Shown piece after piece: positions 8,434-60,600 of a stretch of DNA of 64,000 nucleotides; the first letter of the stretch is position 1; the number at the start of each line of letters is the position of its first letter. This stretch comes from Cordylochernes scorpioides (Eukaryota; Arthropoda; Arachnida; Pseudoscorpiones; Chernetidae). The position numbers and the translations under genes were made by a program. Location of the stretch: positions 89,574,906 through 89,638,905 of the forward strand of contig CP092876.1 of assembly GCA_030710605.1 (NCBI GenBank). Reading direction: 5' to 3'. The notes beneath the pieces were generated by a model. The model ran no database searches. It was not told the DNA's origin and was given only the letters and a program-made list of their open reading frames with translations.

Positions 8434-8625
8434 ATATGTTTAAAATAGAAAAAGAAGATATGTAGATATTAAAAAAGGCATATCCTAACCGCTCTCACAT
8501 GAACATTTTAGATGGTAGAGCGCCATCTAATGGAACAAAAATAAACTAAACGTTTATTTAACTTGTTCTGTGAATATTTGACAAACCCATTTTCTTGATA
8601 AATTATAGTTAAGAAAAATAAAACC
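8434..8625 (-). repeat. Divergent fragment of the hammerhead-bearing repeat
   Basis: Positions 8470-8600 follow the order of the unit repeated at 28481-30110: GGCATATCCT, the GCGCCATCTAATGGAACA segment, AACTAAACGTTTATTTAAC and TTTCTTGATAAAT. It stops before the ribozyme segment. This is an old, truncated member of the family. Confidence 0.6.
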
Positions 8626-8937
8626 TACATTATAAGGGAAATTCGTAACAATATTGTAGCATAAGCCGACTTCATGTAAATATATCCATTGTCATTTGTT
8701 TATTGTAAACATACAAAATATGTAAATTAGGGACAGAGATATAAAAACTATCTTTTTGTTCTGTAGAGTTGAGTTAGTTAAACTTCTCTCGCTTATTAAA
8801 TTGCTTTTGATTGCCAAACGACTTGCTAATTATTTCATCACCACAATATAAATAAAATGACAATTTGTATACAAAGTTAAACAAATTCTAATGTACTGCT
8901 GTTATGAAATAAAGAGTATTGCAATATTAAGGAAAAG

Positions 8938-9175
8938 GCATCTCCTGATCGTAATTTGCGTCACCCAATCGGAATAAATATCAATTAATCGTTTATTTTT
9001 CAAAATTTTTCTGAATTTGGGCCAAATATATATATATTAAAAAATAATAATAAATCAAAAAAAGCCAACGACGTACGCATTTCCATGCTGTTAGTCCTCG
9101 TCAGTGTATTTCTGATAGATGACGCAAACCACCAACAGCTTTTAGTTTGACGATTGGATGCCTTTTTCTTAATTT
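8938..9175 (-). repeat. Related hammerhead-family repeat, degraded core
   Basis: The ends AAGGAAAAGGCATCTCCTGAT and the reverse of GGATGCCTTTTTCTTAA form imperfect inverted termini. On the minus strand at about 9070-9112 a CTGACGA core is followed by GGACTAACAG and GGAAA, a degraded hammerhead. A second member, interrupted by a SINE, lies at 42385-42870. Confidence 0.55.
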
Positions 9176-15495: not shown

Positions 15496-16787
15496 CGAGG
15501 GTTGTCCCATAAGTTCGTGGCCCGACATATAAAGAAAATGGCTAATAAAATTATTATGATTTATATTTCAACATAATCCCCTTTAAGGTCTATACATTTT
15601 TTTCCAGCGATGTTCTAATGCTTTTATGCCCTCCAAAAAGAACGATGTTTCAAGTGACTCAAAAAATGAGGTTACAGCATCAATGACCTCTTCATCTGAC
15701 CTAGAATGAATGCCAGAAAGTGAAATTTTCAAATGAGAATATAGGTGGAAGTCAGACGGAGCTATATCTGGTGAATATGGTGCATGTGGTTAAAGTTCAA
15801 AGCCAGAATCTTAAATAGTAGCCATGGCTTGCAGCGACCGATGACTCGGAGCATTGTCTTGATGGTAAACAATCTTTCTGGACAACATTCCTCTTCTCTT
15901 TTCCTTGATAGCTCCTCGTAGTTGCTTCACAAGATTTGCATAATAATTGCCAGTGATGGTTTGACCCTTATTCAAAAAGTCTAGAAGAAGTACACCCTCG
16001 GAATCCCAAAAGACAGACACCATAACCTTCCCTGCTGATGAAACTGTCTTGGCTTTCTTGGGGGGAGGGGAACCGGAGTGTCTCCATTGCATGGATTGTT
16101 GCTTGGCCTCTGGTGTAAAGTGATGGGCCCAAGTCTCATCCATGGTAACAAATCTACTGACAAATTCTTCTGGATTGGCTTCAAATAACGCAAGATTGTC
16201 CGAAAATAACTTTCTTCTTACAGCCTTTTGATCGGGTGTCAAAAGTTTGGGAACCCAACGGGCAGAAAGCTTTCTGAGGCCCAAGTGTTCTCTCATAATC
16301 CGATCCACTGTTGTTTTTAGAATACCCAAGGTCTCTTCTATCCGACGAACTGTCATTATTCTGTCCAACATAACCAAATCATGTATCTTGTCGATGTTTT
16401 CTTGAGTAACTGACTCAACAGGTCTTCCTGGTCGATGTTCGTCTTCGGTGCTGATCCTCCCTAATTTAAACGCAGCTACCCATTTTTTACTGTGCTATAG
16501 GAAGGAGCATCTTCCCTTAATGTATCCACCATTTCTTCATAGATTTCCTTCGGCGACATTCTTTTCTTACAAAGATATTTTATTACAGCACGAATCTCGT
16601 TTGTCTCCATTTTAGATTATTCCTGTTTCTTGTCCTCTTTCAGAACCCATAACAAAAAACGGTTAGTTGTAGAAACTTAAATATTTACATATCTTTATAC
16701 AAGGCATTAAGGTATATATGGTAAAATTTATTAGTTTCAAATATTTCGTTCTCATGGTCGGGCCACGGACTTATGGGACACCCCTCG
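15496..16787 (-). mobile_element. Mariner (DD34D) element, inactive
   Basis: The ends CGAGGGTTGTCCCATAAGTT (left) and, on the right, ACTTATGGGACACCCCTCG are inverted repeats flanked by TA at 15494-15495 and 16788-16789. Size is about 1.3 kb. The enclosed transposase is broken (see the pseudogene entry). Confidence 0.9.
15583..16610 (-). pseudogene. Broken mariner DD34D transposase
   Basis: Reading the minus strand from METNEIRAVIKYLCKK, the protein follows a mariner transposase through the HTH domain, the first catalytic D (VTMDETWAHH), the second (YHQDNAPSHR) and the third (YSPDIAPSDFH). There is a one-base deletion near 16485 after SYSTVK. Two stop codons follow MATI (about 15800-15811). 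About 342 codons are recognisable, the usual family length. These lesions make it non-functional. Confidence 0.88.
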
Positions 16788-20985: not shown

Positions 20986-21394
20986 TTGTTCCGCCCACAT
21001 CTCCGGAATAACCGACCTATTCAGATGGATCTTTGAAACGACTAAGAATTTCAATTCTAAAAGCTATCAGCCAAAGTTTCAATCCCCATATTGTACTAAT
21101 TAATCCGTTTTCAGATTAATTTGTATATTCGGGGTGCAAAGAAGATAAGTATGCGATACTAATATATTAAATGTGTGTCTTCACTACTACTATTGCTAAT
21201 AACAAACTTTTATTATAAAATAACATAGGTTCGACAAAGATTGGCTTGAGAAGAACATGGACAAAGCGCCGGGTCAGTTGTCTGGTAAAAAAATGTCGAA
21301 GAATAAACTTTTATCTATTTGACAACGGTGTCTAGTAAGTTGTGCTCTTGTTCAATATCAATCCTCTAAACCGTTGAAAGTGATATATATATAT

Positions 21395-21560
21395 ATATGA
21401 AAAAAATAATAGAAAAAATAAAAGATAAGTGGGTCAGGTGTTGATATTAAAAAAAAAAAAAAGAAGGCATCTCCTGACCACGAGCACATGTGATTTTTAG
21501 ATTCTTTCATCTAAAAAGCACATATGCTCGTGGTCAGGAGATGCCTTCTTTATTTTTAAT
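21395..21560. repeat. Short palindromic derivative of the hammerhead-family repeat
   Basis: AGAAGGCATCTCCTGACCAC and GAGCACATGTG at 21463-21492 recur in reverse complement at 21518-21553 around a short centre. Flanking text (AAAAGATAAGTGGGTCAGGT) matches the outer end of the 28481-30110 unit, and the whole lies between TA runs. It looks like a deletion derivative of a head-to-head copy. The ribozyme segment is missing. Confidence 0.6.
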
Positions 21561-22286
21561 ATATATATATATATTATGAATATTTTGTTTTTTGTTGTTG
21601 AAAAAGATAGAGAATTGAAGGTGCAGTCGTAAAAATAGGAAAGATAATTATTTACCCATCAAGTAGTTTTTATTTTGAATTACTTGAAAAATGTACACAT
21701 AAATTATATATTTTTCACAGTAATATAGAATTTATAAAATGAATTCTATATTCGTGAATTAAAACGCAAATTAAATGGTCAATGTCTTTGGAGGAGTTTC
21801 AGCAAAGACCCCAGGAAGTGCCATACTGTTAACTCGACTAATTTTCTCCTTCTTATCTCTATTTCATACTTTAATTAATTAATGAATTATTATTGTAGTA
21901 TATATGTGTGAATACATCCTTTATAAATCTATTCAGAATTAAATTACAAATCTTTTTATAAATATTCCTTTGATGCATTAACTCGATAAAGAGGATTTAT
22001 TTCAAAAGCCTACAATTAAAAAGTGATCAAGATGGCTTTTTGCTCTAGCTCGTACTTATTTGTTTATAAGACAAAGTTCGAAATCGACACGTTACTCAAA
22101 TGATTAAACTTCTTGAGTTAGTTTTAAAAATGCGTATTCGTGAAAAATAAAGCATATATTTTCTGAAATTATAGAAGAATGTGCCTTTTATATTGATAAG
22201 AATGATGATGGGTCTATATGTCTTCCCCCATGGTGGATAAAAAAATATTCTGTCGTTGGTTGGCTATCCATCTGCACCAATAATAA
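21561..22286. other. Unrecognised intergenic sequence
   Basis: No supported gene. Short AT-rich frames only. Confidence 0.4.
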
Positions 22287-27838: not shown

Positions 27839-28679
27839 TAAATAGCATAAAATGTTATAGTTTAAACTTAGGTGTCAAACTATGGCAGTATTGTTACCAA
27901 AAATCACAATAATAAACACTTCTTTGTGATACCAAACCAAAAGTCAGAGAAGCAATATACTTAGTTGCATATACGGGATCCCTTCCAATGCCATATTCTC
28001 TCACGACAAAATTTAACACATATTGGCTCGCAAACCTATGTTTTACACGTTCGCTGGTAAAAAAGAAAGAAGCCTGAATTTGTCATGTAAAGATGGTCTC
28101 ATAAATAAACACTTTTCCTAATTCCCAAAATTTATATTAATTGATCTAAAACTAACATTGTACATGTTATTCATGGTGGTGTCTTGTCCATGAAGCAGAT
28201 CAGATCGGTCCATGCACCCTGATCACAATACCGGCCTACTGAGGTGTCTTGTTCGTTCGTATGGATGTCCTCTTCTGGATTGGTGTCTGCCATATAGAGG
28301 GCTGCAAGAATGGCCGGGTATATATGGTCCGGAGTGAGTTGGGTGTTGTAAAAGTTATTACAGTTCCGGTAGGATCTAGTCATGTCTGGGTTTATCCTCA
28401 TTCCTTTAAAATGTCCTGTTCTGATTCTTGAAATTGTTAATTCTCTATTAATATGTTATTCATATATATATATATATATTAAAAAACGAAATAAAAAAAT
28501 AAAAGATAAAAAGATCAGGTGTTGAAATCAATAATAAAAATGGCATATCCTGACCAGGAGCACATGTGCTTTACAGAAGGCAGAACGCCATCTGGTGGAA
28601 CAGAAATCAACTAAACATTGATTTAACCTGTTCCCTGATATTTGGCCAACCCAATTTCTTGATAAATCAAGAAAAGCCA

Positions 28680-28722
28680 TCCACGAACGCGTTTCGCGCT
28701 TTTTGGCGCTCGTCAGCGTGGA
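28680..28722 (-). ncRNA. Hammerhead ribozyme, type I, unit 1
   Basis: The minus strand shows stem I TCCACG/CGTGGA, core CTGACGA, stem II GCGC/GCGC with loop CAAAAA, GAAA, then CGCG and TT before the 3' strand of stem I. All core positions agree with the hammerhead consensus (CTGANGA, GAAA, UH at the cleavage site). Stem III is only a loopless CG/CG palindrome, as in minimal retroelement hammerheads thought to act as dimers. Confidence 0.85.
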
Positions 28723-29030
28723 ATAGGCTGAACCATTGAGACCAAAAAAGATTTTTTGATCCCAATGGCTTCCTGAAAAACCAAGAAATGGGTATTTAAG
28801 GCCAAACTTGCGTAAATACGCTTAGCACATTAAAAAACGAAATAAAAAAATAAAAGATAAAAAGATCAGGTGTTGAAATCAATAATAAAAATGGCATATC
28901 CTGACCAGGAGCACATGTGCTTTACAGAAGGCAGAACGCCATCTGGTGGAACAGAAATCAACTAAACATTGATTTAACCTGTTCCCTGATATTTGGCCAA
29001 CCCAATTTCTTGATAAATCAAGAAAAGCCA

Positions 29031-29073
29031 TCCACGAATGCGTTTCGCGCTTTTTGGCGCTCGTCAGCGTGGA
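29031..29073 (-). ncRNA. Hammerhead ribozyme, type I, unit 2 (stem III variant)
   Basis: Identical to the unit 1 motif except that the stem III palindrome CGCG is CGCA, which breaks its first C-G pair. The catalytic core and stems I and II are intact. Confidence 0.8.
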
Positions 29074-29215
29074 ATAGGCTGAACCATTGAGACCAAAAAA
29101 GATTTTAATGTGCTAAGCGTATTTACGCAAGTTTGGCCTTAAATACCCATTTCTTGGTTTTTCAGGAAGCCATTGGGATCAAAAAATCTTTTTTGGTCTC
29201 AATGGTTCAGCCTAT

Positions 29216-29258
29216 TCCACGCTGACGAGCGCCAAAAAGCGCGAAACGCGTTCGTGGA
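29216..29258 (+). ncRNA. Hammerhead ribozyme, type I, unit 3
   Basis: Plus-strand copy: stem I TCCACG (29216-29221) with CGTGGA (29253-29258), core CTGACGA (29222-29228), stem II GCGC/GCGC, GAAA, CGCG and a predicted cut after the second T of TT (29252). Confidence 0.87.
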
Positions 29259-29566
29259 TGGCTTTTCTTGATTTATCAAGAAATTGGGTTGGCCAAATAT
29301 CAGGGAACAGGTTAAATCAATGTTTAGTTGATTTCTGTTCCACCAGATGGCGTTCTGCCTTCTGTAAAGCACATGTGCTCCTGGTCAGGATATGCCATTT
29401 TTATTATTGATTTCAACACCTGATCTTTTTATCTTTTATTTTTTTATTTCGTTTTTTAATGTGCTAAGCGTATTTACGCAAGTTTGGCCTTAAATACCCA
29501 TTTCTTGGTTTTTCAGGAAGCCATTGGGATCAAAAAATCTTTTTTGGTCTCAATGGTTCAGCCTAT

Positions 29567-29609
29567 TCCACGCTGACGAGCGCCAAAAAGCGCGAAACGC
29601 GTTCGTGGA
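29567..29609 (+). ncRNA. Hammerhead ribozyme, type I, unit 4
   Basis: Same sequence as the motif at 29216-29258, exactly 351 bp downstream. Two successive cuts would release a 351-nt monomer. Confidence 0.87.
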
Positions 29610-29917
29610 TGGCTTTTCTTGATTTATCAAGAAATTGGGTTGGCCAAATATCAGGGAACAGGTTAAATCAATGTTTAGTTGATTTCTGTTCCACCAGATG
29701 GCGTTCTGCCTTCTGTAAAGCACATGTGCTCCTGGTCAGGATATGCCATTTTTATTATTGATTTCAACACCTGATCTTTTTATCTTTTATTTTTTTATTT
29801 CGTTTTTTAATGTGCTAAGCGTATTTACGCAAGTTTGGCCTTAAATACCCATTTCTTGGTTTTTCAGGAAGCCATTGGGATCAAAAAATCTTTTTTGGTC
29901 TCAATGGTTCAGCCTAT

Positions 29918-29960
29918 TCCACGCTGACGAGCGCCAAAAAGCGCGAAACGCGTTCGTGGA
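29918..29960 (+). ncRNA. Hammerhead ribozyme, type I, unit 5
   Basis: Same sequence, a further 351 bp downstream. The unit is cut short by the TA run shortly after its 3' half. Confidence 0.87.
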
Positions 29961-30110
29961 TGGCTTTTCTTGATTTATCAAGAAATTGGGTTGGCCAAAT
30001 ATCAGGGAACAGGTTAAATCAATGTTTAGTTGATTTCTGTTCCACCAGATGGCGTTCTGCCTTCTGTAAAGCACATGTGCTCCTGGTCAGGATATGCCAT
30101 TTTTATTATA

Positions 30111-30884
30111 TATATATATATAAAACGATTTTTACTCGGAAGCTATTTTAACCCAAATTTTTACATTTAATAAAAAATAGGAATTAACAAATTTGTTTTA
30201 AAAAGTATAAATAGCTAAAAAAGGTGTAAAATATTTTAAAGCTTTTGAACAATATTAAATCAGTTTTAGCCATTTCCCAAAATACACTTTCAGAATTTGA
30301 CGTTAGAAAAAAAAGTTACTACCAAAAATCTGCCTGGCTAGTTATTAGTCAATTAATATGCAGTTTTTGTTTAGCTCAGAGGCAATGAGAAACGAAACTC
30401 TATATTAAATATAAGATTCAGTTTTAGGAAGTTCTCTTTCATCATATCATATTTTAAATCATTATATAATGATAATTATCATTTATTAATTAGTGAAGAC
30501 TGCGTGCACTTTGTCATTTTATTGACAACATATCAATAAATTATTTTCAATTTCAAATTGTCTCTTAATATGGGAAATATTTTTATGTTTTTCATTCTAG
30601 CTGTAATTTTTAGAAAACAATTTATTTCAGAGTTGCATTTATCAATTATTTTGATATTCGCTTTTTAAAAAACATCTTTGTATTATAGATATCTGACGCG
30701 CTTTTTATCTCCTTATTCTGTAATGTTAGTGGTGTAGGAATGGTTCGATTCTATTATAGTTATATCGAGACATTTATAAGTTTATTAAATTTAATTGTCA
30801 TCTATCGTTAAAAGTTTACACAAATAAATTTACTGGCAATGCGCTTCTTTTAAATATAATCAAATATTATCTCTACAGACCTTA
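30111..30884. other. AT-rich intergenic sequence
   Basis: No gene or bounded repeat recognised after the TA run at 30105-30122. Confidence 0.5.
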
Positions 30885-32235: not shown

Positions 32236-32689
32236 TATATAATCATTAGAATATTTATAAACATTCTATATATCAGAATGTTTCCGTCCGGCATATACCG
32301 ATAGAATTTGACTTTTATATGCATTTATATATTACTAAAAATATTTTTTGCTGATTTTGGAATTAGAATTATTACCTTACTTGAGACTTGAAGAGGAAAA
32401 TAAAAGATTACATATTTACATATGTACAAAAAAATTTGAGCCGACCAACGGGAAATGGAATTATCTTTATTTACTGGGCTGCTAACCAAAATGGATGATT
32501 TTGAGCCCCAATGGACGCATAAAGTGGAATATATACAGAGCGTTATATACATTCCATTGTTGGAGGGGCCTGGGGATGGGTGGCCAGGGGATCATCGCCG
32601 GGTAAAAAAAAAAAAAGGCCAACGGGAAACAACAATGGATTTATATTGGGAAAGCCGCGACATCTTGCGGTGGACTTTACAGAGTATTT

Positions 32690-32945
32690 TAAAAACAAAA
32701 AAAAAAAGGCGTATTCTGACCACTCACGCGAGCATTTTGATGGAAACACATCTAATGGAACAAAAATAAACTAAAGGTTGATTTAATTTTGGCCAACCCA
32801 GTTTCTTGATAAATCAAGAAAAGCCCACCACGAATGCGTTTCGGGCTGTAGACCCTCGTCACGTGATGTAGGCCGTAACTCAACGACCAAATATTTCGTT
32901 CAAGGGGCTTCATGAAAAATCAAGAAATTTATTCTATTTAAACCA
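32690..32945 (-). repeat. Divergent single unit of the hammerhead-bearing repeat
   Basis: Follows the 351-bp unit in order: GGCGTATTCTGACCACTC, CATCTAATGGAACA, AACTAAAGGTTGATTTAA, GGCCAACCCAGTTTCTTGAT and the ribozyme region. A stand-alone, diverged copy just upstream of the SVEP1-like gene. Confidence 0.7.
32828..32865 (-). ncRNA. Hammerhead motif with damaged core
   Basis: The minus strand has stem I CACG/CGTG, TGACGA lacking the leading C of CTGACGA, stem II GGG/CCC with a longer loop, GAAA, CGCA and TT. Loss of C3 should abolish cleavage. Stem II differs from the array units but still pairs. Confidence 0.6.
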
Positions 32946-33255: not shown

Positions 33256-33696
33256 ATGACGGTCGGATGGGGGGTACTAGCCATCTTGCTGGTAGCTGTG
33301 GGGGCCGAAGAAGAGGGTCCCTTGCCCCCCGGGCCCTCCACGGGGTCTCACAGCCGCGTGGAGGAGTTGGGGGCCCTGCTGAAGGTGCACGTAGCGCGAC
33401 TGAGGCGTGCATCAACGGCGGAACTGGTGTTCCTTGTGGACAGCTCTTCCAGTGTCGGCGCAGACAACTTTGCCGACGAACTGAGGTTTGTCAGGAAACT
33501 CCTAGCGGACTTCACAGTCTCGCGGAACGCTACGCGAGTCGGCGTGGTGACATTCAGCTCCAAGGGACGTGTTGTCACCCATGTGGATCATCTCTCGGAG
33601 CCTTCCAACAAGTGCGAACTATTGGAGCATCAGCTCCCCGGCATTGGATACTCTGGAGGAGGAACCTACACCTTAGGTGCCATGTTGGAGGCTCAG
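33256..33696 (+). CDS. SVEP1-like exon 1: signal peptide and first half of vWA
   Basis: Starts [20 protein letters not shown], a signal peptide, then a short spacer. The vWA domain begins at [13 protein letters not shown], carrying the DxSxS metal-site motif. It continues through the VRKLLADF helix and [10 protein letters not shown] to [14 protein letters not shown], which supplies the metal-site threonine. The ATG at 33256 is the first in frame. The donor is GCTCAG|GTAGGT, phase 0. The donor is followed by tandem donor-like repeats. Confidence 0.88.
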
Positions 33697-36600
33697 GTAG
33701 GTCTTTCTTGTCTCCTGTTCTGTTGGAGACACGGGTAGGTCTTCCTTGTCTTACCTTGTTCCGGGTTGGATACTGAGGTAGGTCTTACTTTGTTCCGGGT
33801 TGGATACTGAGGTAGGTCTTACCTTGTTCCGGGTTGGATACTGAGGTAGGTCTTACCTTGTTCCGGGTTGGATACTGAGGTAGGTTTTACATTGTTCCGA
33901 GTTGGATACTGAGGTAGGTCTTACTTTGTTCCGGGTTGGATACTGAGGTAGGTCTTACCTTGTTCTGGGTTGAATACTCTAATTACGTGTTGAATACTTA
34001 GGTAGGTTTTAATTGCCTCAAGACCGAGTACTTCAGGATGTTAGCAAGACTCGCTGGACTGCTAGCTAGTACTCACGTATGACTAACCTTTTTTAAAATA
34101 AGGTTATATAACCCTTAGTTTTCACTTTAATCAAATAATACATTTGAACTTCAAAATTATTCAAATATTTGAAACAGCGCAGACTACTTTGTTATTTAGA
34201 ATATTCTCCGGAATGCTCGGCCTGAAGCGGATCAGGCAGTTTTCCTGGTGACGGACGGCTATTCCAACGGAGGAGACCCACGCCCAGCAGCCAGGGACCT
34301 ACGGGAGGCCGGAGTGGAGGTCTTCACCTTTGGGATACGCCACGGGAATATCCGGGAACTGTGGGACATGGCAGCTGAGCCGAGAGCAGAGCATTCCTTC
34401 ATCGTGGACTCCTTCGAGGAGTTCGAAGCCCTAGCACGAAGGGCCTTGCATGAAGGTGAGGAAATCCCTTTAAGCTGCGAGTGAAGTCTGACAATTCTGT
34501 TGCTCGTAGATCTCCAGACTGGAATGTTTGAAGCCCAGAACCCAGACGCGTGTGTTATACTCTGCCCGGAGGACGGTAACTGCTGCGATATATCAGCTAC
34601 GTGCGCGTGTGGCACCCATACAGGACATTTCGTGTGCCAGTGTCCGCCTGGATACCACGGTGTTGGGCTACACGGACAATGCGAACGTAAGTTTAAATAT
34701 CCCAATGTCAACCCCCCATAGTCTTACATTTAGTATATCTGTTCAAATTAAATGTTTCTATCTCACTAAATGTTGTTGTCTTAGGTGATATTTTGCCTTT
34801 AGTTGTTTTAGAGATGAGTTGGTCTTGATGTCTTCAATCTAGTTTGATCTTGGCCTTTCTTCTTCGTCGTTGTCCTGAGGATAAACATTTCAAGGCGTGG
34901 TAGGGGAGGCCAAAATATACGTATACAGTAGACCCTGTTTTAAACAGAAGTCCTCAATACAAGAAGTCTCCAGTAGTTATCTAGTACATGTAGCTGTGTT
35001 GAGAGATAACATGTGCTGTACATCCATTCTGTTTCTGTCCATTAAGTCACTGCTTAAGACAGACTCTCTTCCTTCATAACTACAGAAAGTATTCTTGCAG
35101 AGACGATATAAGTCTGTAGGATACCATATCGTTATTTTGCTTAAATAAATCTTTGCTCAAAGAACATCTTCACCTTCAAAAGAATATATCAAACTATCAG
35201 TTCAGAGGTATATTCAAACCTATATATGATCGTAAAAACCATATTTCATTTATATGATCAAATTAAGCTTAATATAGTAATTTTAAATTCTTTAAATACA
35301 TTAATAAACGTAACATGTGTGTATGTATGAGTAATGTGAACAAAGGTTTACCAGGTCCTTATACAATGGAGGAAAAGAAAAGAAGGAATGTAAAGGGAAA
35401 GTTTGCTCCACCAATTTAACACATGAGTTTGTAGCACGGGCTGAAGAAGGAGTGCTATATGGGATATACATTGTAACGATCTTAATTTGACACGCTCTGT
35501 TTAACTCTTTTTCAAATTCCAATTAAACTGTCTACTTTATTATACCGATTATGTGATAAAATTATCTATTTCTCTTCAACCCGTAGGTTGGTGGCTAGAA
35601 GTATTTTTGTCCTCTCTCAGAACTTCCTTTCTATGAGTATTCTTTTGATGGTAATTTAGGGTCTTCTCCCAAAATTGTTCTTGAATTCCATTCAAGGCCT
35701 TTTACATTTTCTGGTATTCCTTCCATACATCCCTCCAGTAATACATTTATCCTCTCAGAGTGTCGGGCAAGCTGTCTAACATGCTAGTTCTCCTCATCCT
35801 CTCAATCGTCTCCAATAGGTCATATCTCTTCTCCATTATTTTCCAGACATCTTCATTACTTTTTTTGAAGTCTTTGGCATCATTCCGCATAACATCTCGA
35901 AAGCCCTTAGCATTACCATTTTCATCTATGACATGTATTTTAATTCAATAGGAATCCCCTTGAAGATGTATTCGAGAGGTTTGTCCGGCTTAAAGAGCTC
36001 GTACTTTTAAAATGGATTTGAGAGGAGAGGGTGTTGAAGTATTTGCTTAGATAAGGGCTGATAAGTGTTGTTATTGCTTACAGCTTGTCCAGCGGGCAAA
36101 TATAGACCACAGAACGAAACCTTCTGCCATCCATGCCCCGATCCCCACCATACAAGTCCCGTTGGATCTTTTTCGATCCAGAACTGCACCTGCTCTAAAG
36201 GATTCACGTGGAATGGAACTGCGTGCGATAGTAAGTTGTTATAAATATTGCTGAATGACCTTACTTCAAGGGATCATTTCTAAAGTTACGTACGCAGTTC
36301 GATTACCGAACTTCGACGAATGTGTGTTATAAATATTGACACGTGGAAAATTAGGAAAGACAAACTTCGGGATGACACAGCAATTTTCATTTAAGGCAAC
36401 AACAAACTATGAATGATAAACAAAAGATAAGCAATGAGGGAAGTTTACAGAATAACAAATATATAAGCACATCAAAAATGATACTCTGTTAATAAAATAA
36501 TAAATGCTTTGCTACAATATAATAACATAGGACGTGCTGTATTTTAAACATGAAAGCTCCAAGTATAATTTACTGTTGTCTATTTCTAAGTAAAGCTAAA

Positions 36601-39600
36601 GATATGAACAAGTTTAGTATCTTGGTTTATATGATAGTCATATATTTCTCGCTGTCATATAGATATATAGACGACATACTAATTCTATAGTATTAAATAT
36701 GGTTGTATTTTTAAATATTTTAATTTGGCAAATCATGTGTGTATTGTTAAATGAACAGGTGAATCTTAAGAAATTGTAAAAAATAGGTTAATTTGCTTTT
36801 TAAAAATGTGCAAACAAAAAATTTAAAGGAGTTGATTTTTTTTAACATGATTATCATCCTTGCAAAATTACAATGTATATCTGTCTAAATACCTAATACC
36901 ACCAGCAAAAACATCTCTCGGGCAAGTTCCGCTGATCTCAGCTTTTCAGAAAGTAGATCACTAGCTCGAGTCACCGTCCTGTACAGATAACGTCCGTAGT
37001 CCGAAATCCTGGGTTGGCTTTATCGAATTTATCAAAACTCTGATGCAATGACATATCAACTAATATAAATTGCGTGATCCTCTGGCAAAAATGATTTACC
37101 CGATTTACCCATTTTTTTAGATTTTCTAGAGATTTTCTTTTGTTTGCAAGTCAATTAAACTCAATAAAATCTATCAAGAGCTACAAAAAACTACCTGAAA
37201 TGGTCAAATTTTGAGATGATCGTCCGTTATTGTGATTTCAAGACATTTGCTTAGTGGTCCTATCTTCCAGGCAACAACAACATCGTCACCCCGGCCGTTT
37301 TAACTAGAATGTGGATTAATCCCCTGCAGAGGCTTCGCTTAGAGTGGTCAGTGATAACGAATCCCTTGTGATCTTTGTTGACAAGTTTTACTGTAGATAA
37401 AGGGCGTCAGTTTGATCAAGAATTGATATTAGTTTAACTTTATTTTCAAATTAAAAAATAATTTCCTACTGCCTCTACTGCTATGAGGAAAATTATTAAA
37501 AGAGCCTGGCTCATCAGGGATACCCCTCCCAATGATTTAACCAGTTAAGTCTACCATAAAAAGGGTTTTAATGCGTATATAGTTTTTTTCTACTTTCTCT
37601 GTTTCAGTGACCAAATGTCCCGCTCTGGAAGCTCCAACAAACGGCAAGTTCGTGGCCCCCTGCGACCATATCTTCCACGCGGCGTGCGGAGCTATCTGCG
37701 ACCCGGGCTACGAGCTCCAGGGCAGCAGTATCCGCGTCTGTGGAGCGGACAGCAAGTGGACGGGGCAGGAGGCCGTGTGTGTCGGTAGGTAGACCACCCG
37801 GTAGACAGTCGCCACAGTAATCCCCTGACACTGCCCTCACAGTAAGGCAGTGCTCCCCGCTCACCGCCCCACACCACGGAACCGTGAACTGCTCCACTGA
37901 CGACTTCAGGTTTGACACGGAGTGCAAGTTTGCCTGTGAACGTGGCTATGTCCTGGTCGGGAGTTCCAGCAGGAGTTGTCTGGCGGTGGCCATGTGGGAT
38001 GGCTTGCGGGCTTTCTGCAGGGGTAACAAACTTCTCGCCATCATCCTAATTCTCAATTCATTACATCAAATATATTCATAAATTCTCTCAGCGTCATCTA
38101 TCGTATACAATTATAACACTATTTTATAACCTTACATTTCTCTTTAAAAAAAAAGATATATAATTAATATATACCTGCAATAGATAAAAATGCAAAGAGG
38201 GAGGAAAATAGGCATGATGAGCCTTGCCCCTACTCTTTCAATTCTTATTAATTGTATAGTTTAAGACCTGTGGGGATTCCTCGCTAGGTGGCGAACCGAA
38301 GAAGCAGCAGGTAACTACGGCTCTCGCCAAGTATTATTATTTCTTTATATCTTTTGCCTTTTATTCCTTTATTTAAAAATTGCTTTTCCTCCTCACTCAT
38401 GTACATATATAACCTTTTAGGGGAATTCCCTTGTAAAACAATAGTGTTTTAATAAAGGTTTTTGTTGTAAAAAAAAGGTTAAAGGCCTGTGGAAATATAG
38501 CATCTAATTAATCTATATATATATATATAAATCAATGTTTGTATATGTTTGTTTGTTTGTATGTCCGGTATACAAATTCGCAGTAGTTCACTAATTCAAA
38601 CCAAAATTTCCATACATAGATAAAAAAAAAACAATGGTTGCCTGTAAAGTCGGTTTTACGGGCGAAGATTTTACGTGACAACGGTAGAATATTTATTGAT
38701 ATGAATATAATTAAATTGCACAATAGGAACAAGGAATTGAATGAAAATTAACTCATCAAAACACTTATTCAGATCGAAGGTTCAAATTTTTGCTAAATAA
38801 ATTTGAAATTAAATAAAATTTGTAATTGTAAATGATGAAGTTGAAAATTAAAACATTTACTTATATTAGATGTTAAAATTCTTGCTCAACACAGTTTAAA
38901 TAAGGTTTTCTTATATCTGCCACTTTTTCTTAATATTTGTTATTTTAAATAATCAATTCGAAAATCAAAACATTTATTCAGATCGAAGGTTCAAATTTTT
39001 GCTAAATAAATTTGAAACTATTTAAAATTTGTAAAATAATAATTAATTAATTATTTAATTTTAAACTAATAATTTACTTAACACTATCAACATTTATCAA
39101 TAGTATGACATAACCTATAAACTCAGTTTCTCAACTTTTGTGTCAATCTAACAATTAATCAATCAATCATAGTTTACGATAATGAAATATCAGTGTACAA
39201 TTATTTACCTTTATTGTTGTAGTTGTTGTAAATGACGAATCTAAGCACTCCACATTTTCACTACAGACACAGCTGACGATACTTTAACCACACGTGTGAA
39301 CTTGTATTATGACGCTTTCTTGTTTTTCCAACGCCAAGAACGTTCGAGAAAGACAAAGACAGAGACAAGCATGCGCCGATTCAATGCGCCTAATTCTCTA
39401 GCTCTGCGCGCGCAGCACTCTCGTTCGGTGACTCATCGTAACGTTACCGGGCGTTACACTTTTTCATAAGTGACTCCCAGCCGCAACCTAATTTAAGACG
39501 TTGTCACGTCAAAAATACGGGGAAGACGATAGGCTATTTAAAAATATATATAAATCAATTATTAAAACTATATATTCAAATTATTCTACTTAGCTCACGA

Positions 39601-42600
39601 ACAGCGCCCTCTATCAAAGATTAGATTAAATTATGCTGAAGCAAACAAATAGATAATGCTAATAACAAACAATTATATAAAAAAAATCTTATCTAAATAT
39701 ATATCACTCGGGTAGATATGCACACGGGTCAATCCCGGGGCGAAGCCCGTGTCACCCGTCTAGTTATCTATATTTTAAAATAAATGTAGCGCTAAAAATA
39801 TTTATAATTTACATTTATAATCATCCGAAATTTCTTTTGATAGATAACCAGAACAAAGGTACAGAGAATACCAGCAATGATCCCCTGAAATATACATGTG
39901 TGACGAGATATAACTTAAAATATCAGTAAAGTCTCTGTTCTACCACCATAGAAATAATGTTGAGAAGATGACCTGTATACAAAGATTTTGTGCAATGGCT
40001 GTTAACAATTATGGGACGCAGGGGCGTCACTTGCCTAGGTAGTCCCAAGCCACCTCCTTCGGGCGTGGCCGTATAAATTCTTGCATTTTTAGTCCTAAGA
40101 ATTGACATAGATCCAGAACAGAAGCTTTACACACCTAAGATAGAGAACATTGCTGTGATAGAGATGCCCGGAGACATCTGAGGCTCTTCATTGGACACGT
40201 CAACAACAACAAAAATAATTATAAAAAGTATATATATATAAAAGCTATATACATGCTTTCTACCAGTTATTTCAATAGAATATTAGCATTGAACACATGA
40301 CATATTTTCAAGTTATGCTGAAGTATACATTGAGAGGTGTGACAGCTGCTACCTGCAAGCCCCTCCCACTCATGGACCACGGAACCCTGGACCCTCCCAG
40401 ATGCCAGTCATCCCGCTCCACCCACGGGGAGTCCTGTACCGCCGTCTGTATCCCAGGATTCCAGCTCCGGGGACCCAGTCATCTGGAGTGTGGTCCAGAT
40501 GGCAAATGGATTCCTGGAAACAACTCCCTTGTCTGCCATGGTCAGTATCCATATGTTGGGCAATGGGAGATATGCTGAAGCTCCCTCACGGTTTGACAAT
40601 TGAATATTTGATACCTGCTGCACTTCTAACTTATTTTCAATCCTGAAGAATGCTATATTCACCGAAACATTTTAAAAATAAAGAAATTCATATAAATGAG
40701 AAATGTCCCTTCAATACTAGATTACGAAACCCCCGAGATTTGTTTTTCTAGTATAATTGAAACTATAGAGGAGAACACTAAATGAAAGGGGTAAGTGCTT
40801 CTTTATTTGACATATAACTCGAGCTTTCGATCAGGACGCCTTTGTACAGGCTAGGAACTCAGTGCTCAGCCTGTCAAAGAGCGTCACGTCCGAAAACTCG
40901 AGCTATATATGTAAATAAAGAAGAACTTCACACACATTCAGTATTCCCTTATATACATATCCTCCTCAGAAATTGAAGCAATGAAAGGAGAATGGGTAAA
41001 TGGACTCAGGAAATCTTTCAGTTAAACTGGGATCTTCAGACACCGCTTTCTCTACACTCTATTTAAACCACGTTATAACGATTTATTTATTTATATTCCG
41101 ATAAAACTGGGCTACGAGCTTTCAAACAAAGATCTTATTCACGGCCCTAACTACGATATAAAACAGCTCTTAAAGATATTCCCTTTATATATTGTTGCAT
41201 CATGGCTAATGAACCTATTTTATTTTAATTTGTAATATTATTTTTCATATATTTTAAATTCAAAATTATATTTTATATTTATTTATTTTATTAAACAGAA
41301 TATATGTATTATAAACAGAATATATGTATTATAGAATCATCATTTGTATTTAGGTACACGTGTGACTTCACTGCTCTCTTTGATGTGAGAAATAAATAAA
41401 TTATTCTGGAGGCTACTTAAAGTTATCTCATTATTCCCTTATATAAATTTGTAGGATGGTTGAAACACGCTCTGGTAAGATACAAGACCCGGCACAGGAG
41501 AGAATCAAGGTTGAAGAGTTTGCCAAGCCGCAACCTGGTGCAACTATACATCTACCTTTACTATTGTTTTGTGCTGTTTGGATTAAACTCGTAGAGAGAG
41601 AGTGTACAAATTCTAAGGCTTATATACCTTAGGAAAATGGGGGAACTTTCTGTTCATAGGCTTCTAGGTACATAGAAAGACTATTTGCTAAGTTTCAAAA
41701 CTTGCAGTTTTCCAGAAAATCTCATGTCAAGAGCCTATTTAGCATACTTTGAATACAATATACAACTATTAATAATACAATATAATGCGGCTTATGATTG
41801 TAGAGCGACATTTGAAAATTATCCCGCATGTGTTTCTTTTGGACGAAAAATCGAAATTTATTTTAAGGAGAAATAACGATTATTTCTAACTTTAGGGATG
41901 AAGTATGAAAGGAAAGTAATTTATTATTCCCATCCCAGGACACTTTTATTTTTCAGTTCATCATTACTCTTCAAAATTCATCCTTTCATACTTCATCCTA
42001 AGGCTGGAAATAGTAGTTATTTCTCCTTAAAATAAATTTCGATTTTTCGTTCAAAAGAAACACATGCGGGATAATTTTCAAATGTCGTTCTACACCTATT
42101 CATAAAAAAAAAAATTGGAATTTTTTTAAAGTTGAGAATTTAAATTTTCAAACAAAGCATTCTTTAAGAGAAATAGAACGATGAGGGATTTAGAGATATA
42201 TGCTTTGTATATTTTAAAATGCTTGCTTGCTAGAATTGAAATAGTATGCTTTGTAAAAAATTGTATCAGTTGATTCACTCAAAATATTATCTTGGGAAAA
42301 TGAAACTTAACTATCAATTTATATGAAACAAATAGTAAAAAAAGTGAAATTGTACTGGGATTAGGTGGATAAATAAAGAAAAAGGCATTTCCTGGTCGTC
42401 CAACTAAAAGTTGCTTATAGGGGGGGTCGATGGTCTAAACCGTTGATTTTAGACCGCTACGAATCTCTCATTGGGCACCTTTTTTTCTGAAAAAAAAAAA
42501 TGCTCCAATGGCCCCCGATTCTTGCCAAAGTCCAACCCCACCAGCAAGTGCAAGTAACCAAACGATGCTCTGGCTGTAAATGCAAAATTCGAACTGCTTT

Positions 42601-45600
42601 TCACATGTGTAGATATGTGGTTCACTTACAATAAAAGCAGTCGCCAACTTCTACCCACCATGATCATCATGGTCTATACCACGTCCACTTGGGAAAATAA
42701 ATGGCTTGTGCCATATGTCGGAATAAATGTAACTAATCGCTGATTTTTTTAAATTATTCCAAGATCGGCCAAAAATACATTTCTTAATATATATTATAAA
42801 CGACAGATGGCGCAAGCCATCAGCAACTTTTAGTTGCACGATCAGGGGAAGCATTTTTCTTAATTTACTTCAAAATGTTTGTGTGTTGTGCAAAACTTTA
42901 TTATCTACTTGAATATATTGAAGCGTATCTGAGATCTGACAACAAGGTTTGTATTTATAATACTTATGCCCCGCCTCCATGCTGAAAGTGGGCGTGGCCT
43001 AGATGTGGAACCGCCCCAATTGGAGTGCCCGGACGACGTGGTGGTGAGGGCGAGCGAGGGGGAGGCGGGGTCTCAGGTGACATGGCCCGCCCCCCAGACC
43101 TCTGACAACAGTGGAGCGACTGTGGCCCTCTCATTAGTCCCTGCTGTCAGCTCTCCCTATTGGTTCCCCATAGGCTCCTCCCACCTCAATTACAAGGCCA
43201 CCGATCCGGCGGGGAATGACGCCTCCTGCACCTTCCGTATCCACGTCAGAGGTGAGGTGGTTTACAACGTTTCCATATACATCTGTCTCTCTAGCCATTT
43301 TTTGAATTTTACAGTATTATACCACATACAAAAATTACCCAAATATGTATATAAAGCACAACACATTATAATAGCGATGCGTTTGTCTTTCTATTAGATT
43401 AGATAAAATTTTTATTATTTTGTTTTAGGAGCCCGTCCTTGATCTTTGGATCTAAAGCTTGCAGTATTACAATGAAGAAATGTTTCGGCTTTATAATGTA
43501 TTGTGATCCTCCGAGTCTTATGTATATATGGCCAATTTGACCTATGTCTTAACTCATCTTCTAGGATTTTGTGAGATCGAAGCTGTACTGGTGAGGGCAA
43601 TAGCCCGAAACAACGGTATTCAGAAGAGTGGTATAAAGAAAGACCCTAAACTTCCAATATATATTTTAAAGCCTTACGGTAAAAAGGTATTAAAATATAA
43701 TTCTTATGAAAAGATTGTGACTGATATCAATAAAGAGTATTCTTTGACATTAATCTCCATTATAAGATAGAAGAATAAAAAAGTATATTAGATTTATAAA
43801 TTTATATAGATAGAGAGTATTTAGGATCGAGTTATAAAAGTTTATTCAGATCAAAATAAAGGCGATATTTCTAGAGTCTCTGTTCGTTTCTTTTTTTTCA
43901 ACAAAATCACAAGTCAAGTGGCCGCCTCTATGTTACAGCAACGAATATTTTGATGATGTTTTGTCTAGGGCCAGGTCATATTTTTGTTTATGATGCTGTT
44001 GGGGTATGGGATTTTTCTTGAAAAAGAAAAACGAACATCCTCTCGAAATAAAACGTTTATTGTGGATTTAAATAAACCCTTTAACCAAAATAATCCAATA
44101 TATATTGTAACAAAGTATTTATTATTTTATTAGCAGAGTATTATTTTTTATGTTTATATTTTGCTATACTCTGTACACTTCCCTCTTTTGCTTATCTTTC
44201 GTTTATCACTCATAGTTTGTTCTTGCCTGAAATAAATTGTTGTCTCATCCCGAAGTTGGTCTTCCCTAATTTTCCAAGTGGCAATATATATATATACACA
44301 CGTCCTATTATTGAATAAATTCAAAATATCAATTGCACTATAGTCTTCCTCAACATTTTGTATTTTTATATTCCATGTCTCTCCAAAGAGGAAGTAAAGT
44401 AGGCGGGGCCTGCGACAGACGAGGAACCGCCCACAGTTGACAGTTGCCTATCCCCGGAGGCCGTCTACAGTATGGATCTGGCTGCTCCGGTCATATGGGC
44501 GGAGCCTCTGTTTTCTGACAACGCCCCCGGGCCCCTGACTGTCATCCGTTCCCACTCCCCTGGGGCTGAGTTCCCCCGTGGGGAGACCCACGTCACCTAT
44601 GAAGTTCAGGATGGGGCGGGGAATAACAACACGTGTCACATCGTTGTCCGGGTGGAGGGTAAGTCTTCTTCACATACTCTGGAGCTGTTCTATTTGTAAT
44701 ATACATATGATCTGATTAGAGCCTATTTACAGGGTGTCCCAAAATAACGGAGTCAATGTTTATTTTTTTTATTCTAACACTAAAGTATTGAACCGCAATA
44801 AATTAATATATATATTTTGTCGGATTCTCCATGTTTTTATGTACCATTATGTTAAGTTTCGACTTTGTGCTGACTTATATTTTGTCGTGTTTTTAGGATG
44901 TCAAACTAACGTAATTATTGAGCTGTTTGTTAAGGAAAACGTCAATGTGAAATTGTTAGGTTTCTCAAAGTATTTCAACAAACTGTGTCCAAGGTCATCG
45001 CTTCAATGATCTTGGTCATAAAGACGACCGTGCCGGAGGAGAAAGAAAGCGCGCCGCCAACACTTCCGCCAACCGTAAGATCATCAAAGAGAGATTTCAA
45101 CGAAATTCAAGGGTGTCCATGAGAAAGATTGCCCGTGAGATCGGCATAAACAAGTCGTAGGGACATCGAATAGCGAAAAAGGAACTTAACCTCAAGGCGT
45201 ACAAGCTCCTCACGGATGAGAACAAGCGCGTACGGCTGGAGAAATGTCGCCGACTCAAACATAGAGCCACTGGTCAGCGATGGGAGCGCATCCTCTTCAC
45301 TGACGAGAAGCTGTTTACCCTCGAGCAGGCTCACAACCATCAAAACGACAGGAGCTGGTCGGCTGAGGCATTCGGTACATTGGCGATCGTCGAACACCGC
45401 CAAAATCCGCAGTCGGTTATGGTATGGGCCGGGATTTGCGCCAGTGGAAAGACCCTCCTTATTTTCGTGGATTTATGGTTTCAAAATCAACCAAGAAGTG
45501 TATCGCCGCGACATTCTCGAGGCCACAGTACTCCCGTGGGCTAAACAACACTTCGGCGATTCGGATAGGACGTTACAGCCTAACTCCGCTCTGGGTCGCA

Positions 45601-57600: not shown

Positions 57601-60600
57601 ATTAGAGCTCTGAAAAGCGGTCTGGTGGATTAAGTTGGCGAAACCGCTGGGAGAGTTCACCACTGATGAGCCAAGCCCTCCCAATATATTTTTTTCATCG
57701 CAGTAAGGGCAGTAGAAGTTTGTATTATGTATAAAAGAAACATTCGTACTTTTTAATTCTTTCATTTTATATTTATTTATTTGTAAAACGACATTTAAAA
57801 ATTATCCCGCATGTGTTTCTTTTGAACGAAAAATCAAAATTTATTTTAAATAGAAATAACGATTATTTCTAACCTTAGGGATGAGGTATGAAAGGATGAA
57901 TTGTGAAGAGTAATGATAAACGGAAAAATAAAAGTGTCCAGGGATGGGAAACGAACCCAAAGTGTTCCATATATAATATTGTATTATTTATTCATTTATT
58001 TCAATTTAAAGCGCTATGTCCCCCCTAGGGACACTTGCACTGTCATACATGTATGTCTTTACATTTGCTATACATATATATTTACAATACTTTTAGGCCG
58101 TAAAGAGAACAGTCATATGATATTAACAAGGAGAAAGAGCGGGAGAGAGAGAAAAAAAAAAAAGATAACAGAAAACTGTGTACAAAAGAAAGAAATGTCT
58201 GGAAATTTTATAATATATAATATCAAATTCAACACACAAGGAGCTGAAAACAATGTTTATAATTTTTAACATTGTTTTCAGTTCCTTTTGTGTTGAATTT
58301 GAGCAGGGGAAAAAATGGAATATATTTGGAGAAAATAGATATATTGTTTTGTTATCACTTGTGTTTGTGGGGTGGTTGCAACATGTTCAGGAAAGACGGC
58401 AGCCAACACGAGTGAAAGAACGATAAACCGCCAACCGCAACATGTTTGAGCTTCATACTTGCATAGCTAGCCGTCAAGTTCTTTCCCCTTACCTGTGACA
58501 TGTTTCTATAACAAATATAAACCGTGTCTTCATCATTGTAACATCCTCGAGTTTGTTAGTTGATGTTAATCAGCAAGAAGTATTTGGAAGTTTAAAAAGA
58601 AAAGTCTTTATTTCCTTTAGGCTAACCACCGACATAAGTTTACATGTGGATATATATTACAATAAGTCAAAAAGACAACTCCACAGAGTACCATCAGTGA
58701 TGTGCTCACTGATAATTTACTATATAGGCATTCCAGCTGCCGTTACAATCATTATACAGATGTCTTCTAAGAGAACCCCATATTTCTGAGAAGACCAATA
58801 AACCAAGTTGTAACTAATAGCTAATACTGGATAGAGAGAAATGTAGTGGATGTGTCCAGTCTTGTGCCCTGTGGGGACCCACTTCGATGTCCTCAACGGA
58901 GTCAAATGTCTCTCCTGTCCCCAGGGGACCTACCAGTTCCAGGAAGGACAGCTGGCTTGTCTCGTCTGTCCAGAACACACTTCCACACTCTCCAACAACT
59001 CCAAGAGTCTAGGGGAATGCAAAGGTAATACTTCCCTACACGTCAATATGGAACATACGTGACTGTACGCGACATGACGAGATGTTAGCGCTAGCAGGAG
59101 AGAACAGATGTCTCATATTAAAATACTTGAATAGATGAATTGGAGATGCTATATGCTAAGATAGCCTACTCAAAATATCGATCGAAGGTCCTCTTGTCAA
59201 GATAACACCCTTGTATTAACTTTGTAGATCAACCATTGAGAGAAACCAAGACAGCACCAAGTCTTTCCACCAGTTGTAAACAATGTCTATGAATTGAACA
59301 TCTTAGAGGAGCCTGAAAACTATGGCTATGGATTGAACATCTTAGAGGAGCCTGAAAACTATGGCTATGGATTGAACATCTTAGAGGAGCCTGAAAACTA
59401 TGGCTATGGATTGAACATCTTAGAGGAGCCTGAAAACTATGGCTATGGATTGAACATCTTAGAGGAGCCTGAAAACTATGGCTATGGACTGAACATATTA
59501 GAGGAGCCTGAAAACTATGGCTATGGATTGAACATCTAAGAGAAGCCTGAAAAATATGGCTATAGATTGAATATCTTAGAGGAGCCTGAAAACTATGGCT
59601 ATGGATTGAACATCTAAGAGAAGCCTGAAAAATATGGCTATGGATTGAATATCTTAGAGGAGCCTGAAAACTATGGCTATGGATTGAACATCTTAGAGGA
59701 GCCTGAAAACTATGGATATGAATTGAACATCTTAGAGAAGCCTGAAAACTATGGCTATGGATTGAACATCTTAGAGGAGCATTAAAACTATGGCTATGGA
59801 TTGAACATCTTAGAGGAGCCTGAAAACTATGGCTATGGATTGAACATCTTAGAGGAGCATTAAAACTATGGCTATGGATTGAACATCTTAGAGGAGCCTG
59901 AAAACTATGGCTATGGATTGAACATCTTAGAGGAGCCTGATTGAGAAGGTACACCAGTCTTAAGATTGAAATACACCTGAAATTTATATACGCATGAGAC
60001 ACTATTCTCTCTCTATTGAGAGAAAATTCAATTTTGCAAGAGACAGGAAAACCTCTCTTAAGCGAGTCGTTAACTGGAAACCTGTTGGCTGCGGGTAAAA
60101 CTACCTAGCCACCCAGTACTTGTATGCACAAGTTTGTGTTAGGAGATAGTCTGTATTATTGAATAATTTTTTGTGTTCCTTCAACTGCAAGTTTCAACTG
60201 TAGCTCTATAAATGGGAGATCAAGAGGAACGTGGTGAGTTTCTTTATTGAGAGGTACACAAGCTTTCGGACGTCACCCGTCCTTCATCAGGTGTTGACAT
60301 GAATAATAAGGAGATGCTATATTTATAAGCGACAGTTTAAAAGTATTAAAAATATTAAAAACAATCTGATGCACGCCCGCGAGAGCACATGCTAATAACA
60401 AAATATTTTCAATTTTACTTTGAGTTTGTATAAAGAGAGGTGAAGACAAAAGCAAGAAAAAACAAAAATAAAAAATAAAAATAGAAAATCAGTGGAATAA
60501 AGATAAAGTTAAAAGTTACGAAGAAGATAAAGTTAAAAGTTACGAAGAAGGTGTATCTGAGGTAGAATAAAAAACAGAATATTGGGGCGGGAGGTCAATC

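What the first reader, a model, noticed from the sequence alone, without database searches (positions are those of the whole stretch)
28481..30110. Retrozyme-like array: five 351-bp units, each with a consensus hammerhead ribozyme
Seen: units recur exactly every 351 bp, carry no ORF, and each has CTGACGA, a GCGC/GCGC stem II, GAAA, UU at the cleavage site and a 6-bp stem I. Known: tandem non-coding units with type I hammerheads define retrozymes, which spread via self-cleaved circular RNA. Inference: this is an animal retrozyme family, apparently unannotated, that may still yield 351-nt circles.
Basis: partly seen in the sequence, partly recalled or inferred. Interest (0 to 1): 0.92.

Follow-up and report, generated by a model that had tools for sequence, protein, structure and literature searches.

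The report
Head-to-head hammerhead retrozyme insertion
This is a recently inserted animal retrozyme, a small non-coding jumping element whose RNA carries a self-cutting ribozyme, and the way it sits in the DNA as two back-to-back tandem arms inside a TA repeat points to Penelope-like retroelements as the machinery that copied it in.

Summary
The unit is 351 bp and near-perfectly repeated, with five type I hammerhead motifs (Rfam HH9, 38 or 33 bits, below gathering 52). It is not one array but two opposed arms: left 28478-29106 (-, 1.8 units) and right 29103-30109 (+, 2.9 units), sharing 4 nt at the centre and embedded in (TA)n on both sides. It fits published animal non-LTR retrozymes (NAR 2020): a new member of a known kind.

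The added value is in the ends. Both outer ends are RNA 3' ends, at unit nt 155 and 208, not at the ribozyme cut. A second, diverged head-to-head insertion (21383-21574) ends within about 4 nt of the same two sites, also between (TA)n tracts; three other remnants end near nt 155 with different 5' ends. Head-to-head arms, an optional tail on one arm and AT-rich targets are published Penelope-like element (PLE) hallmarks, and a PLE-like inverted pair in the window (60202-61415) shows the same anatomy.

Best explanation: circular or multimeric retrozyme RNA reverse-transcribed from both strands of a broken (TA)n tract by PLE machinery. Helix III is minimal, so cleavage is probably dimeric. Host genome and RNA could not be tested.

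The parts
28462..28479 (.). left (TA)n flank of the insertion
   Evidence: one of 13 (TA)>=6 runs in 64 kb
28478..29106 (-). left arm: 1.8 retrozyme units on the minus strand; RNA 3' end at 28478 (unit nt 208, site B), RNA 5' end at unit nt 282
   Evidence: boundary mapping; inverted repeat of 629 nt
29103..30109 (+). right arm: 2.9 retrozyme units on the plus strand; RNA 5' end at unit nt 202, RNA 3' end at 30109 (unit nt 155, site A)
   Evidence: TRF
29103..29106 (.). TTTT shared by both arms at the centre (microhomology)
30107..30122 (.). right (TA)n flank
29206..29272 (+). type I hammerhead, copy 1 of right arm; cut after 29252
   Evidence: Rfam HH9 38 bits; descriptor scan
29557..29623 (+). 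type I hammerhead, copy 2 of right arm; cut after 29603
29908..29974 (+). type I hammerhead, copy 3 of right arm; cut after 29954
29017..29083 (-). type I hammerhead, inner copy of left arm, with G>A at 29039 in helix III
   Evidence: Rfam HH9 33.4 bits
28666..28732 (-). type I hammerhead, outer copy of left arm; cut between 28686 and 28685
29383..29425 (+). hairpin GGUCAGG/CCUGAUC whose loop holds site A (unit nt 131-137 with 167-173), shown in the first right-arm copy
   Evidence: such hairpins are common by chance
29408..29460 (+). optional 'tail' between site A and site B (unit nt 156-208), shown in the first right-arm copy
   Evidence: present at the outer end of the left arm, absent from the outer end of the right arm
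21383..21574 (.). second, diverged head-to-head retrozyme insertion between two (TA)n tracts: left arm (-) with tail, right arm (+) ending near site A
   Evidence: two-unit query: nhmmer E 1.9e-8 and 4.6e-5, blastn ends at unit nt 204 and 159; family model that includes these copies: E 8.9e-20 and 2e-13
32688..32929 (-). diverged monomeric relative, 5' truncated, 3' end near site A; hammerhead with altered stem II and the first core C missing
   Evidence: two-unit query nhmmer E 7.8e-26
8463..8605 (-). diverged relative, 5' truncated, 3' end at site A
   Evidence: blastn query 169-305, i.e. to unit nt 155, 79% identity; nhmmer E 2.7e-17
8932..9108 (-). diverged relative with a decayed hammerhead, 3' end near site A
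   Evidence: two-unit query nhmmer E 1.5e-5
42333..42874 (.). possible third, older head-to-head relative
   Evidence: parts at E 1.5e-4, 0.011 and 0.67; inverted repeat I13: weak
60202..61415 (.). Penelope-like head-to-head pair used as in-window comparison: 13-bp target duplication (60202-60214, 61403-61415), 28-29-nt tail on the right arm only (to 61402), hammerhead-like motif near both outer ends
   Evidence: read; PLE assignment by anatomy only, no RT domain in it

Best explanation
A non-autonomous animal retrozyme. Its RNA is cut to 351-nt monomers by the type I hammerhead, most likely as a dimer of two copies, and closed into circles (inferred). A Penelope-like reverse transcriptase/endonuclease broke a (TA)n tract on both strands; each DNA 3' end primed internally on the retrozyme RNA, one at site A (nt 155) and one at site B (nt 208), and ran round the template 2.9 and 1.8 times. 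The two cDNAs were joined at their far ends through 4 nt of homology. Shown: the anatomy (two arms, recurring 3' ends, variable 5' ends, TA flanks, near-identity). Inferred: the RNA circle, the enzyme and the joining step.
For: Arms and limits. The five copies differ at one base. The outer ends of the two clear head-to-head insertions abut (TA)>=6 runs, 4 of 4; such runs with 3-nt margins cover 0.43% of the window (for the second insertion I set the ends by eye at the runs, and the homology model puts them at 21402 and 21560; the two flanks of one insertion are not independent). In both insertions one arm ends at site A and the other at site B: nt 155 and 208 in the main array, nt 159 and 204 by blastn in the second. 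The three other remnants end at about nt 155, 152 and 148, with different 5' ends. The second insertion's left arm holds tail sequence that its right arm lacks, so snap-back copying of the right arm cannot alone make it. Published PLE behaviour: the protein cuts and extends both strands at AT-rich DNA and starts internally at two adjacent sites in a stem loop, giving an optional tail (PMC11167929); head-to-head is the commonest inversion, with a tail on one inverted pLTR and short target duplications (PMC3846280 passages). The in-window PLE-like pair has the same anatomy. The 2020 retrozyme paper names PLEs as a strong candidate without showing it. Dimer: predicted dimer MFE -43.1 kcal/mol against 2 x -18.4, with stems I, II and III of a double hammerhead. 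Folded circle: z -7.7, 0 of 100 shuffles as low.
Against: Only one window; no host genome held, so no genome-wide count of ends. The ends of the three diverged remnants lie in T-rich sequence and are certain only to about 10-15 nt, and 0 of the 3 lies beside a (TA)n run; nor does the PLE-like pair. In the published PLE the start site is not homologous to the cut DNA, whereas here 2 or more nt of AT overlap exist at the joints. The hairpin round site A is weak support: 23% of unit positions, 9% of PLE-arm positions and 6% of random window positions pass the same test. No PLE reverse transcriptase was found among the 15 frames that I scanned; the RT found (61719-63335) gives only a general RVT_1 match. 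A linear multimer would explain the multi-unit arms as well as a circle. The predicted dimer also pairs the cut-site U with A14, so it is not exactly the active core; a dimer of the G>A copy with a normal one does not take this fold.
Confidence: 0.7

Rival explanations
1. The retrozyme was inserted by a LINE through ordinary target-primed reverse transcription, and the inversion is L1-like twin priming.
For: Twin priming also gives inverted 5' parts (recalled); an RT frame with a general RVT_1 match lies at 61719-63335; the 2020 paper and a review list LINEs as possible helpers.
Against: In L1 twin priming (recalled) the outer end of the inverted part lies at arbitrary internal sites; here both outer ends fall at or within about 4 nt of two recurring sites in 2 of 2 clear cases. 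There is no poly(A) end. [quoted passage not shown]
Confidence: 0.17
2. The opposed arms arose after insertion or by snap-back: a single tandem copy was made, then the cDNA self-primed or the locus was duplicated in inverted orientation.
For: Self-priming was proposed for Penelope palindromes (PMC3846280). The 4-nt overlap at the centre would allow it, and the second insertion's arms meet almost symmetrically, 6 nt apart.
Against: The outer ends abut (TA)n and sit at start sites; in the second insertion the left arm holds tail sequence that is absent from the right arm; the central start points differ by 80 nt in the main array.
Confidence: 0.08
3. Plain satellite DNA that happens to carry a hammerhead, expanded by unequal exchange, with no RNA-mediated movement.
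For: Tandem, non-coding, AT-rich repeats; amphibian hammerhead repeats were first called satellites.
Against: Recurring 3' ends with variable 5' ends among dispersed diverged copies, opposed arms and a microsatellite target are retrotransposition marks.
Confidence: 0.03
4. Assembly artefact (palindromic chimera).
For: A long near-perfect inverted repeat is a known artefact type; no reads were available.
Against: The two flanks differ beyond the (TA)n, the arms start and stop at different unit positions, and a second, independently diverged insertion has the same design with arms 94% complementary over 49 nt.
Confidence: 0.02

Closest known systems
Animal (metazoan) non-LTR retrozymes, Cervera & de la Pena 2020 (PMC7229834; parts 1-4 of 6 read, i.e. 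the text up to the start of the references; supplement not seen)
   Same: 351-bp unit (published about 170-400), GC 38% (published <45-50%), tandem type I hammerheads, no LTR, no long ORF, stable self-paired RNA, a PLE-like element with hammerhead-like motif near by.
   Different: Arms are head-to-head; reverse transcription starts at two recurring internal sites; target is (TA)n. The text that I read does not describe these.
Axolotl HHR_Amex1 and newt hammerhead repeats (PMC7229834)
   Same: Helix III of one base pair capped by a palindromic tetraloop (A-U and CGCG here); said to act as dimers.
   Different: The paper says that helix III is typically longer in invertebrate hammerheads. Sequence relation to the amphibian units was not tested.
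Penelope-like elements: Poseidon of Anolis (PMC11167929, parts 1-2 of 4 read) and Penelope of Adineta vaga (PMC3846280, passages)
   Same: Head-to-head pairs, optional tail at one arm, AT-rich target, internal start sites, microhomology joints (Adineta), hammerhead motif (Anolis).
   Different: No protein is encoded; the unit is 351 bp. It would work as a PLE passenger and is not a PLE.
Plant LTR retrozymes (PMC4918200, search listing only; features as told)
   Same: Hammerhead-bearing non-coding units with circRNA intermediates.
   Different: Type III hammerheads, LTRs, PBS/PPT, 600-800 nt, about 4-bp duplications: type, size and LTR differ here; PBS and PPT were not sought.
Rfam RF02275 Hammerhead_HH9
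   Same: All five copies match over the model 1-77, including the CCAAAAAG stem II loop.
   Different: Below gathering score; the helix III part is 5 nt shorter.

Membership tests
Animal non-LTR retrozyme | Tandem repeats of about 150-450 bp with a type I hammerhead per unit | tested here: met
   351-bp units, 5 motifs
Animal non-LTR retrozyme | Low GC (<45-50%) | tested here: met
   38.5%
Animal non-LTR retrozyme | No protein coding | tested here: met
   longest M-frame 50 aa in a doubled unit
Animal non-LTR retrozyme | No LTR flanking an internal region | tested here: met
   the whole insert is unit copies, flanks are (TA)n; PBS and PPT were not sought
Animal non-LTR retrozyme | Highly self-paired RNA | tested here: met
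   circular MFE -112.6, z -7.7 against 100 shuffles, 63% paired
Animal non-LTR retrozyme | Loop 1-loop 2 tertiary contacts of the hammerhead (some published members lack them) | not tested
   no tertiary model was made
Animal non-LTR retrozyme | Self-cleavage and circular RNA in tissue | not testable with these tools
   needs RNA
Animal non-LTR retrozyme | Multiple copies in the genome | tested here: inconclusive
   no genome held; one further head-to-head insertion, 3 remnants and a weak fifth place in the window
Animal non-LTR retrozyme | Target site duplication, when present, longer than 4 bp | tested here: inconclusive
   target is (TA)n, so a duplication cannot be told from the repeat
Hammerhead ribozyme, type I (Rfam) | Score at or above a hammerhead gathering cut-off | tested here: not met
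   38 bits against 52 for HH9; core, stems I and II present
Hammerhead ribozyme, type I (Rfam) | Stable intramolecular helix III | tested here: not met
   A-U plus CGCG; free folding of two copies gives an intermolecular helix III, one copy folds otherwise
Penelope-like element | RT with GIY-YIG endonuclease ORF | tested here: not met
   unit is non-coding; not a PLE itself
PLE-type insertion pattern | Head-to-head arms with tail on one arm, AT-rich target | tested here: met
   main array and 21383-21574
PLE-type insertion pattern | Short target site duplication | tested here: inconclusive
   hidden in (TA)n for both retrozyme insertions; 13 bp at the PLE-like pair

The most novel reading that the evidence does not exclude
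Animal retrozymes are passengers of Penelope-like elements: PLE machinery primes on circular retrozyme RNA from both strands of a broken (TA)n tract at two fixed start sites, and the head-to-head multi-unit array with a one-sided tail is the genomic signature of that event. The same two-strand priming would explain the long-known inverted pLTRs of PLEs.
Probability: 0.5. Interest if true: 0.75.

Novelty: new member of a known kind. Interest (0 to 1): 0.55.

Why it matters
Which enzyme moves animal retrozymes is left open in the 2020 paper, which calls PLEs a strong candidate. The ends here make that directly testable: if retrozyme copies across genomes stop at two sites flanking a tail, sit head-to-head in AT repeats and share these marks with the resident PLE, the helper is identified, and arms longer than one unit record how far the enzyme ran round the template.

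Tried and rejected
Host genome search: none held. Collection scans for the hammerhead core, a 21-nt unit stretch and the PLE-like motif in viral contigs and for the hammerhead core in genome contigs: 0 matches each; these collections hold viruses and prokaryotes, so this says little about animals.

Shared tail between retrozyme and the PLE-like element: a T-rich local match scores 42 (0 of 2000 dinucleotide shuffles of the PLE arm as high, maximum 40) and the stretch over its hammerhead-like motif scores 38, against 35 for the best unrelated stretch; the latter is a 24-nt match at 92%. The first is low-complexity and the second is not significant with the family model (E 2.5). Kept as a lead only.

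Hairpin round the start site: found in the unit, in the second subfamily and in the PLE-like element, but common by chance. The energy of the written double-hammerhead structure could not be evaluated (the script returned an invalid value); only the free dimer MFE is used. The same failed for the 2-bp helix III of one copy.

Other Rfam matches, to miRNA, FasX, leader and snoRNA families among others, are below their gathering scores, several of them within inverted repeats; I did not take them as members, though one (MIR9486 on the hairpin at 21460-21552) has E 1.8e-10. The repeat with CTGATGAGCCAAGC (5 copies by pattern) shows no hammerhead arrangement on inspection and was not pursued. My descriptor scan did not accept the PLE-like motif at 60290/61298, whose stem II has an extra A; that it is a PLE-type hammerhead is my reading. 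The schistosome W-element paper (PMC8490949, passages) gave nothing on insertion ends that I used.

Papers: PMC4209133 and PMC5785218 are not held. Searches for prior notice of inverted or tail-bearing retrozymes; nothing in the titles and abstract openings listed, or in the passages that I read, describes it. Subscription papers, preprints and supplements were not seen.

Full report
Observation. Mapping against the periodic unit (nt 1 = C29253, first base after the predicted cut) gives a right arm 29103-30109 (+) from unit nt 202 round to nt 155, 1007 nt or 2.9 units, and a left arm 28478-29106 read on the minus strand from nt 282 round to nt 208, 629 nt or 1.8 units; the arms share TTTT at 29103-29106. 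TRF lists the right arm only; the inverted-repeat search shows both. Across both arms one base departs from the unit, a G>A at 29039 in helix III of the inner left copy; it lies in a CpG, so later deamination is an easy cause (inference). Read from the left, transcription could release two complete monomers (29253-29603, 29604-29954); from the right, one (29036-28686) (arithmetic).

Ribozyme. All five copies match Rfam Hammerhead_HH9 over the full model, 38 bits (four) and 33.4 (one), below the gathering score of 52; no hammerhead match elsewhere in the window reached E 5. Stems I (6 bp plus an outer GCC/GGC) and II (4 bp) and the core are standard by reading. Helix III is A-U plus CGCG, which cannot close on itself well: a single copy folds into an alternative pairing of the core (MFE -18.4 and -20.6 for two lengths). 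Two copies together fold, as the predicted optimum, into the double-hammerhead arrangement at -43.1 against -36.8 for two monomers, with one extra A-U pair on each side at the cut site; a pair with the G>A copy does not. The 2020 paper describes the same helix III form in axolotl, active as dimers. So cleavage as dimers is likely, and a tandem arrangement would help it. The circular unit is strongly folded (z -7.7).

Relatives in the window. Searching with two tandem units found four further places: 32700-32928 (-), 8466-8603 (-), 21414-21499 (-) with 21508-21554 (+), and 8933-9107 (-), nhmmer E 7.8e-26 to 4.6e-5; weaker blastn matches, many of them T-rich, were left out. A model built from these five pieces and the unit adds a weak place at 42333-42874, E 1.5e-4 for its best part, against a best of 0.052 in the reversed window. 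The copy at 32.7-32.9 kb has stem II GGGU/GCCC instead of GCGC/GCGC, one pair changed on both sides, but lacks the first core C, so it is probably dead.

Ends. The copy at 8463-8605 stops at unit nt 155, where the right arm stops; the copies at 32.7 and 8.9 kb stop at about nt 152 and 148, with some uncertainty in T-rich sequence; their 5' ends differ. The insertion at 21383-21574 is head-to-head, lies between two (TA)n tracts, its right arm matches to nt 159 and its left arm runs on through the tail to nt 204. The main array has 155 and 208. The four outer ends touch or lie within 4 nt of (TA)>=6 runs; there are 13 such runs in 64 kb, covering 0.43% with 3-nt margins. The three monomeric remnants and the PLE-like pair are not beside such runs.

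Reading. Recurring 3' and variable 5' ends mean target-primed reverse transcription. Because both outer ends are RNA 3' ends, both DNA strands primed. Because the ends are not at the ribozyme cut, priming was internal. A circle explains this most simply, and near-identity of the copies fits repeated copying of one molecule, though a linear multimer is not excluded. Two start sites with an optional tail, both-strand cutting and extension at AT-rich DNA, and internal starts in a stem loop are what a purified PLE protein does (PMC11167929, parts 1-2 of 4 read). Head-to-head pairs with a tail on one inverted pLTR, short target duplications, a microhomology joint and preference for simple AT-rich targets are described for Penelope in Adineta (PMC3846280, passages). 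The window's own PLE-like pair shows it: 13-bp duplication AGCTCTATAAATG, left arm without and right arm with a 28-29-nt tail. It is called PLE-like from this anatomy and a hammerhead-like motif; it holds no RT domain.

Known and new. Animal non-LTR retrozymes are published, with PLEs named as the strong candidate helper (passages of reviews). The element is therefore a new member of a known kind. I found no description of the head-to-head, tail-bearing, (TA)n-embedded form in the searches listed, which cover open-licence papers only.

Host. Not named. VWA, Sushi and HYR domains on nearby plus-strand frames (33256, 37821, 42933, 44403, and 3 of 10 frames) suggest an animal gene; transposase and RT frames fit an animal genome. 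Arthropod is my guess, not a result.

Noticed in passing
60202-61415: Head-to-head PLE-like pair with hammerhead-like motifs at 60290 (-) and 61298 (+), 13-bp target duplication, 28-29-nt one-sided tail and a 202-bp duplication within the left arm.
   Followed up: partly
186-374 and 446-634; also 57663 (+), 37517 (-), 30928 (-): Another small repeat family with a CTGATGAGCCAAGC core; one pair is head-to-head at 99% complementarity.
   Followed up: partly
42333-42874: Possible third, decayed head-to-head retrozyme pair (E 1.5e-4 for its best part).
   Followed up: partly
33256-44696 (+): Frames with VWA, Sushi and HYR domains, resembling an SVEP1-like gene (name recalled); the retrozyme lies about 3 kb upstream of the VWA frame.
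   Followed up: partly
45905-45963 (-): tRNA-like match above Rfam's gathering score (34.1 bits against 29), covering model positions 7-64 of 71.
   Followed up: no
49820-55434: Long coding-like tandem repeats reading GQSGGSWTQ; a 904-aa open frame at 53141-55855 has no Pfam match at E 0.001.
   Followed up: no
61719-63335 (-): Reverse transcriptase frame (RVT_1, E 2.4e-25), 538 aa, probably of a LINE (my reading).
   Followed up: no
13110-14165 (-) and 15811-16377 (-): Transposase frames (DDE_3 with HTH; Transposase_1, mariner type by recall).
   Followed up: no
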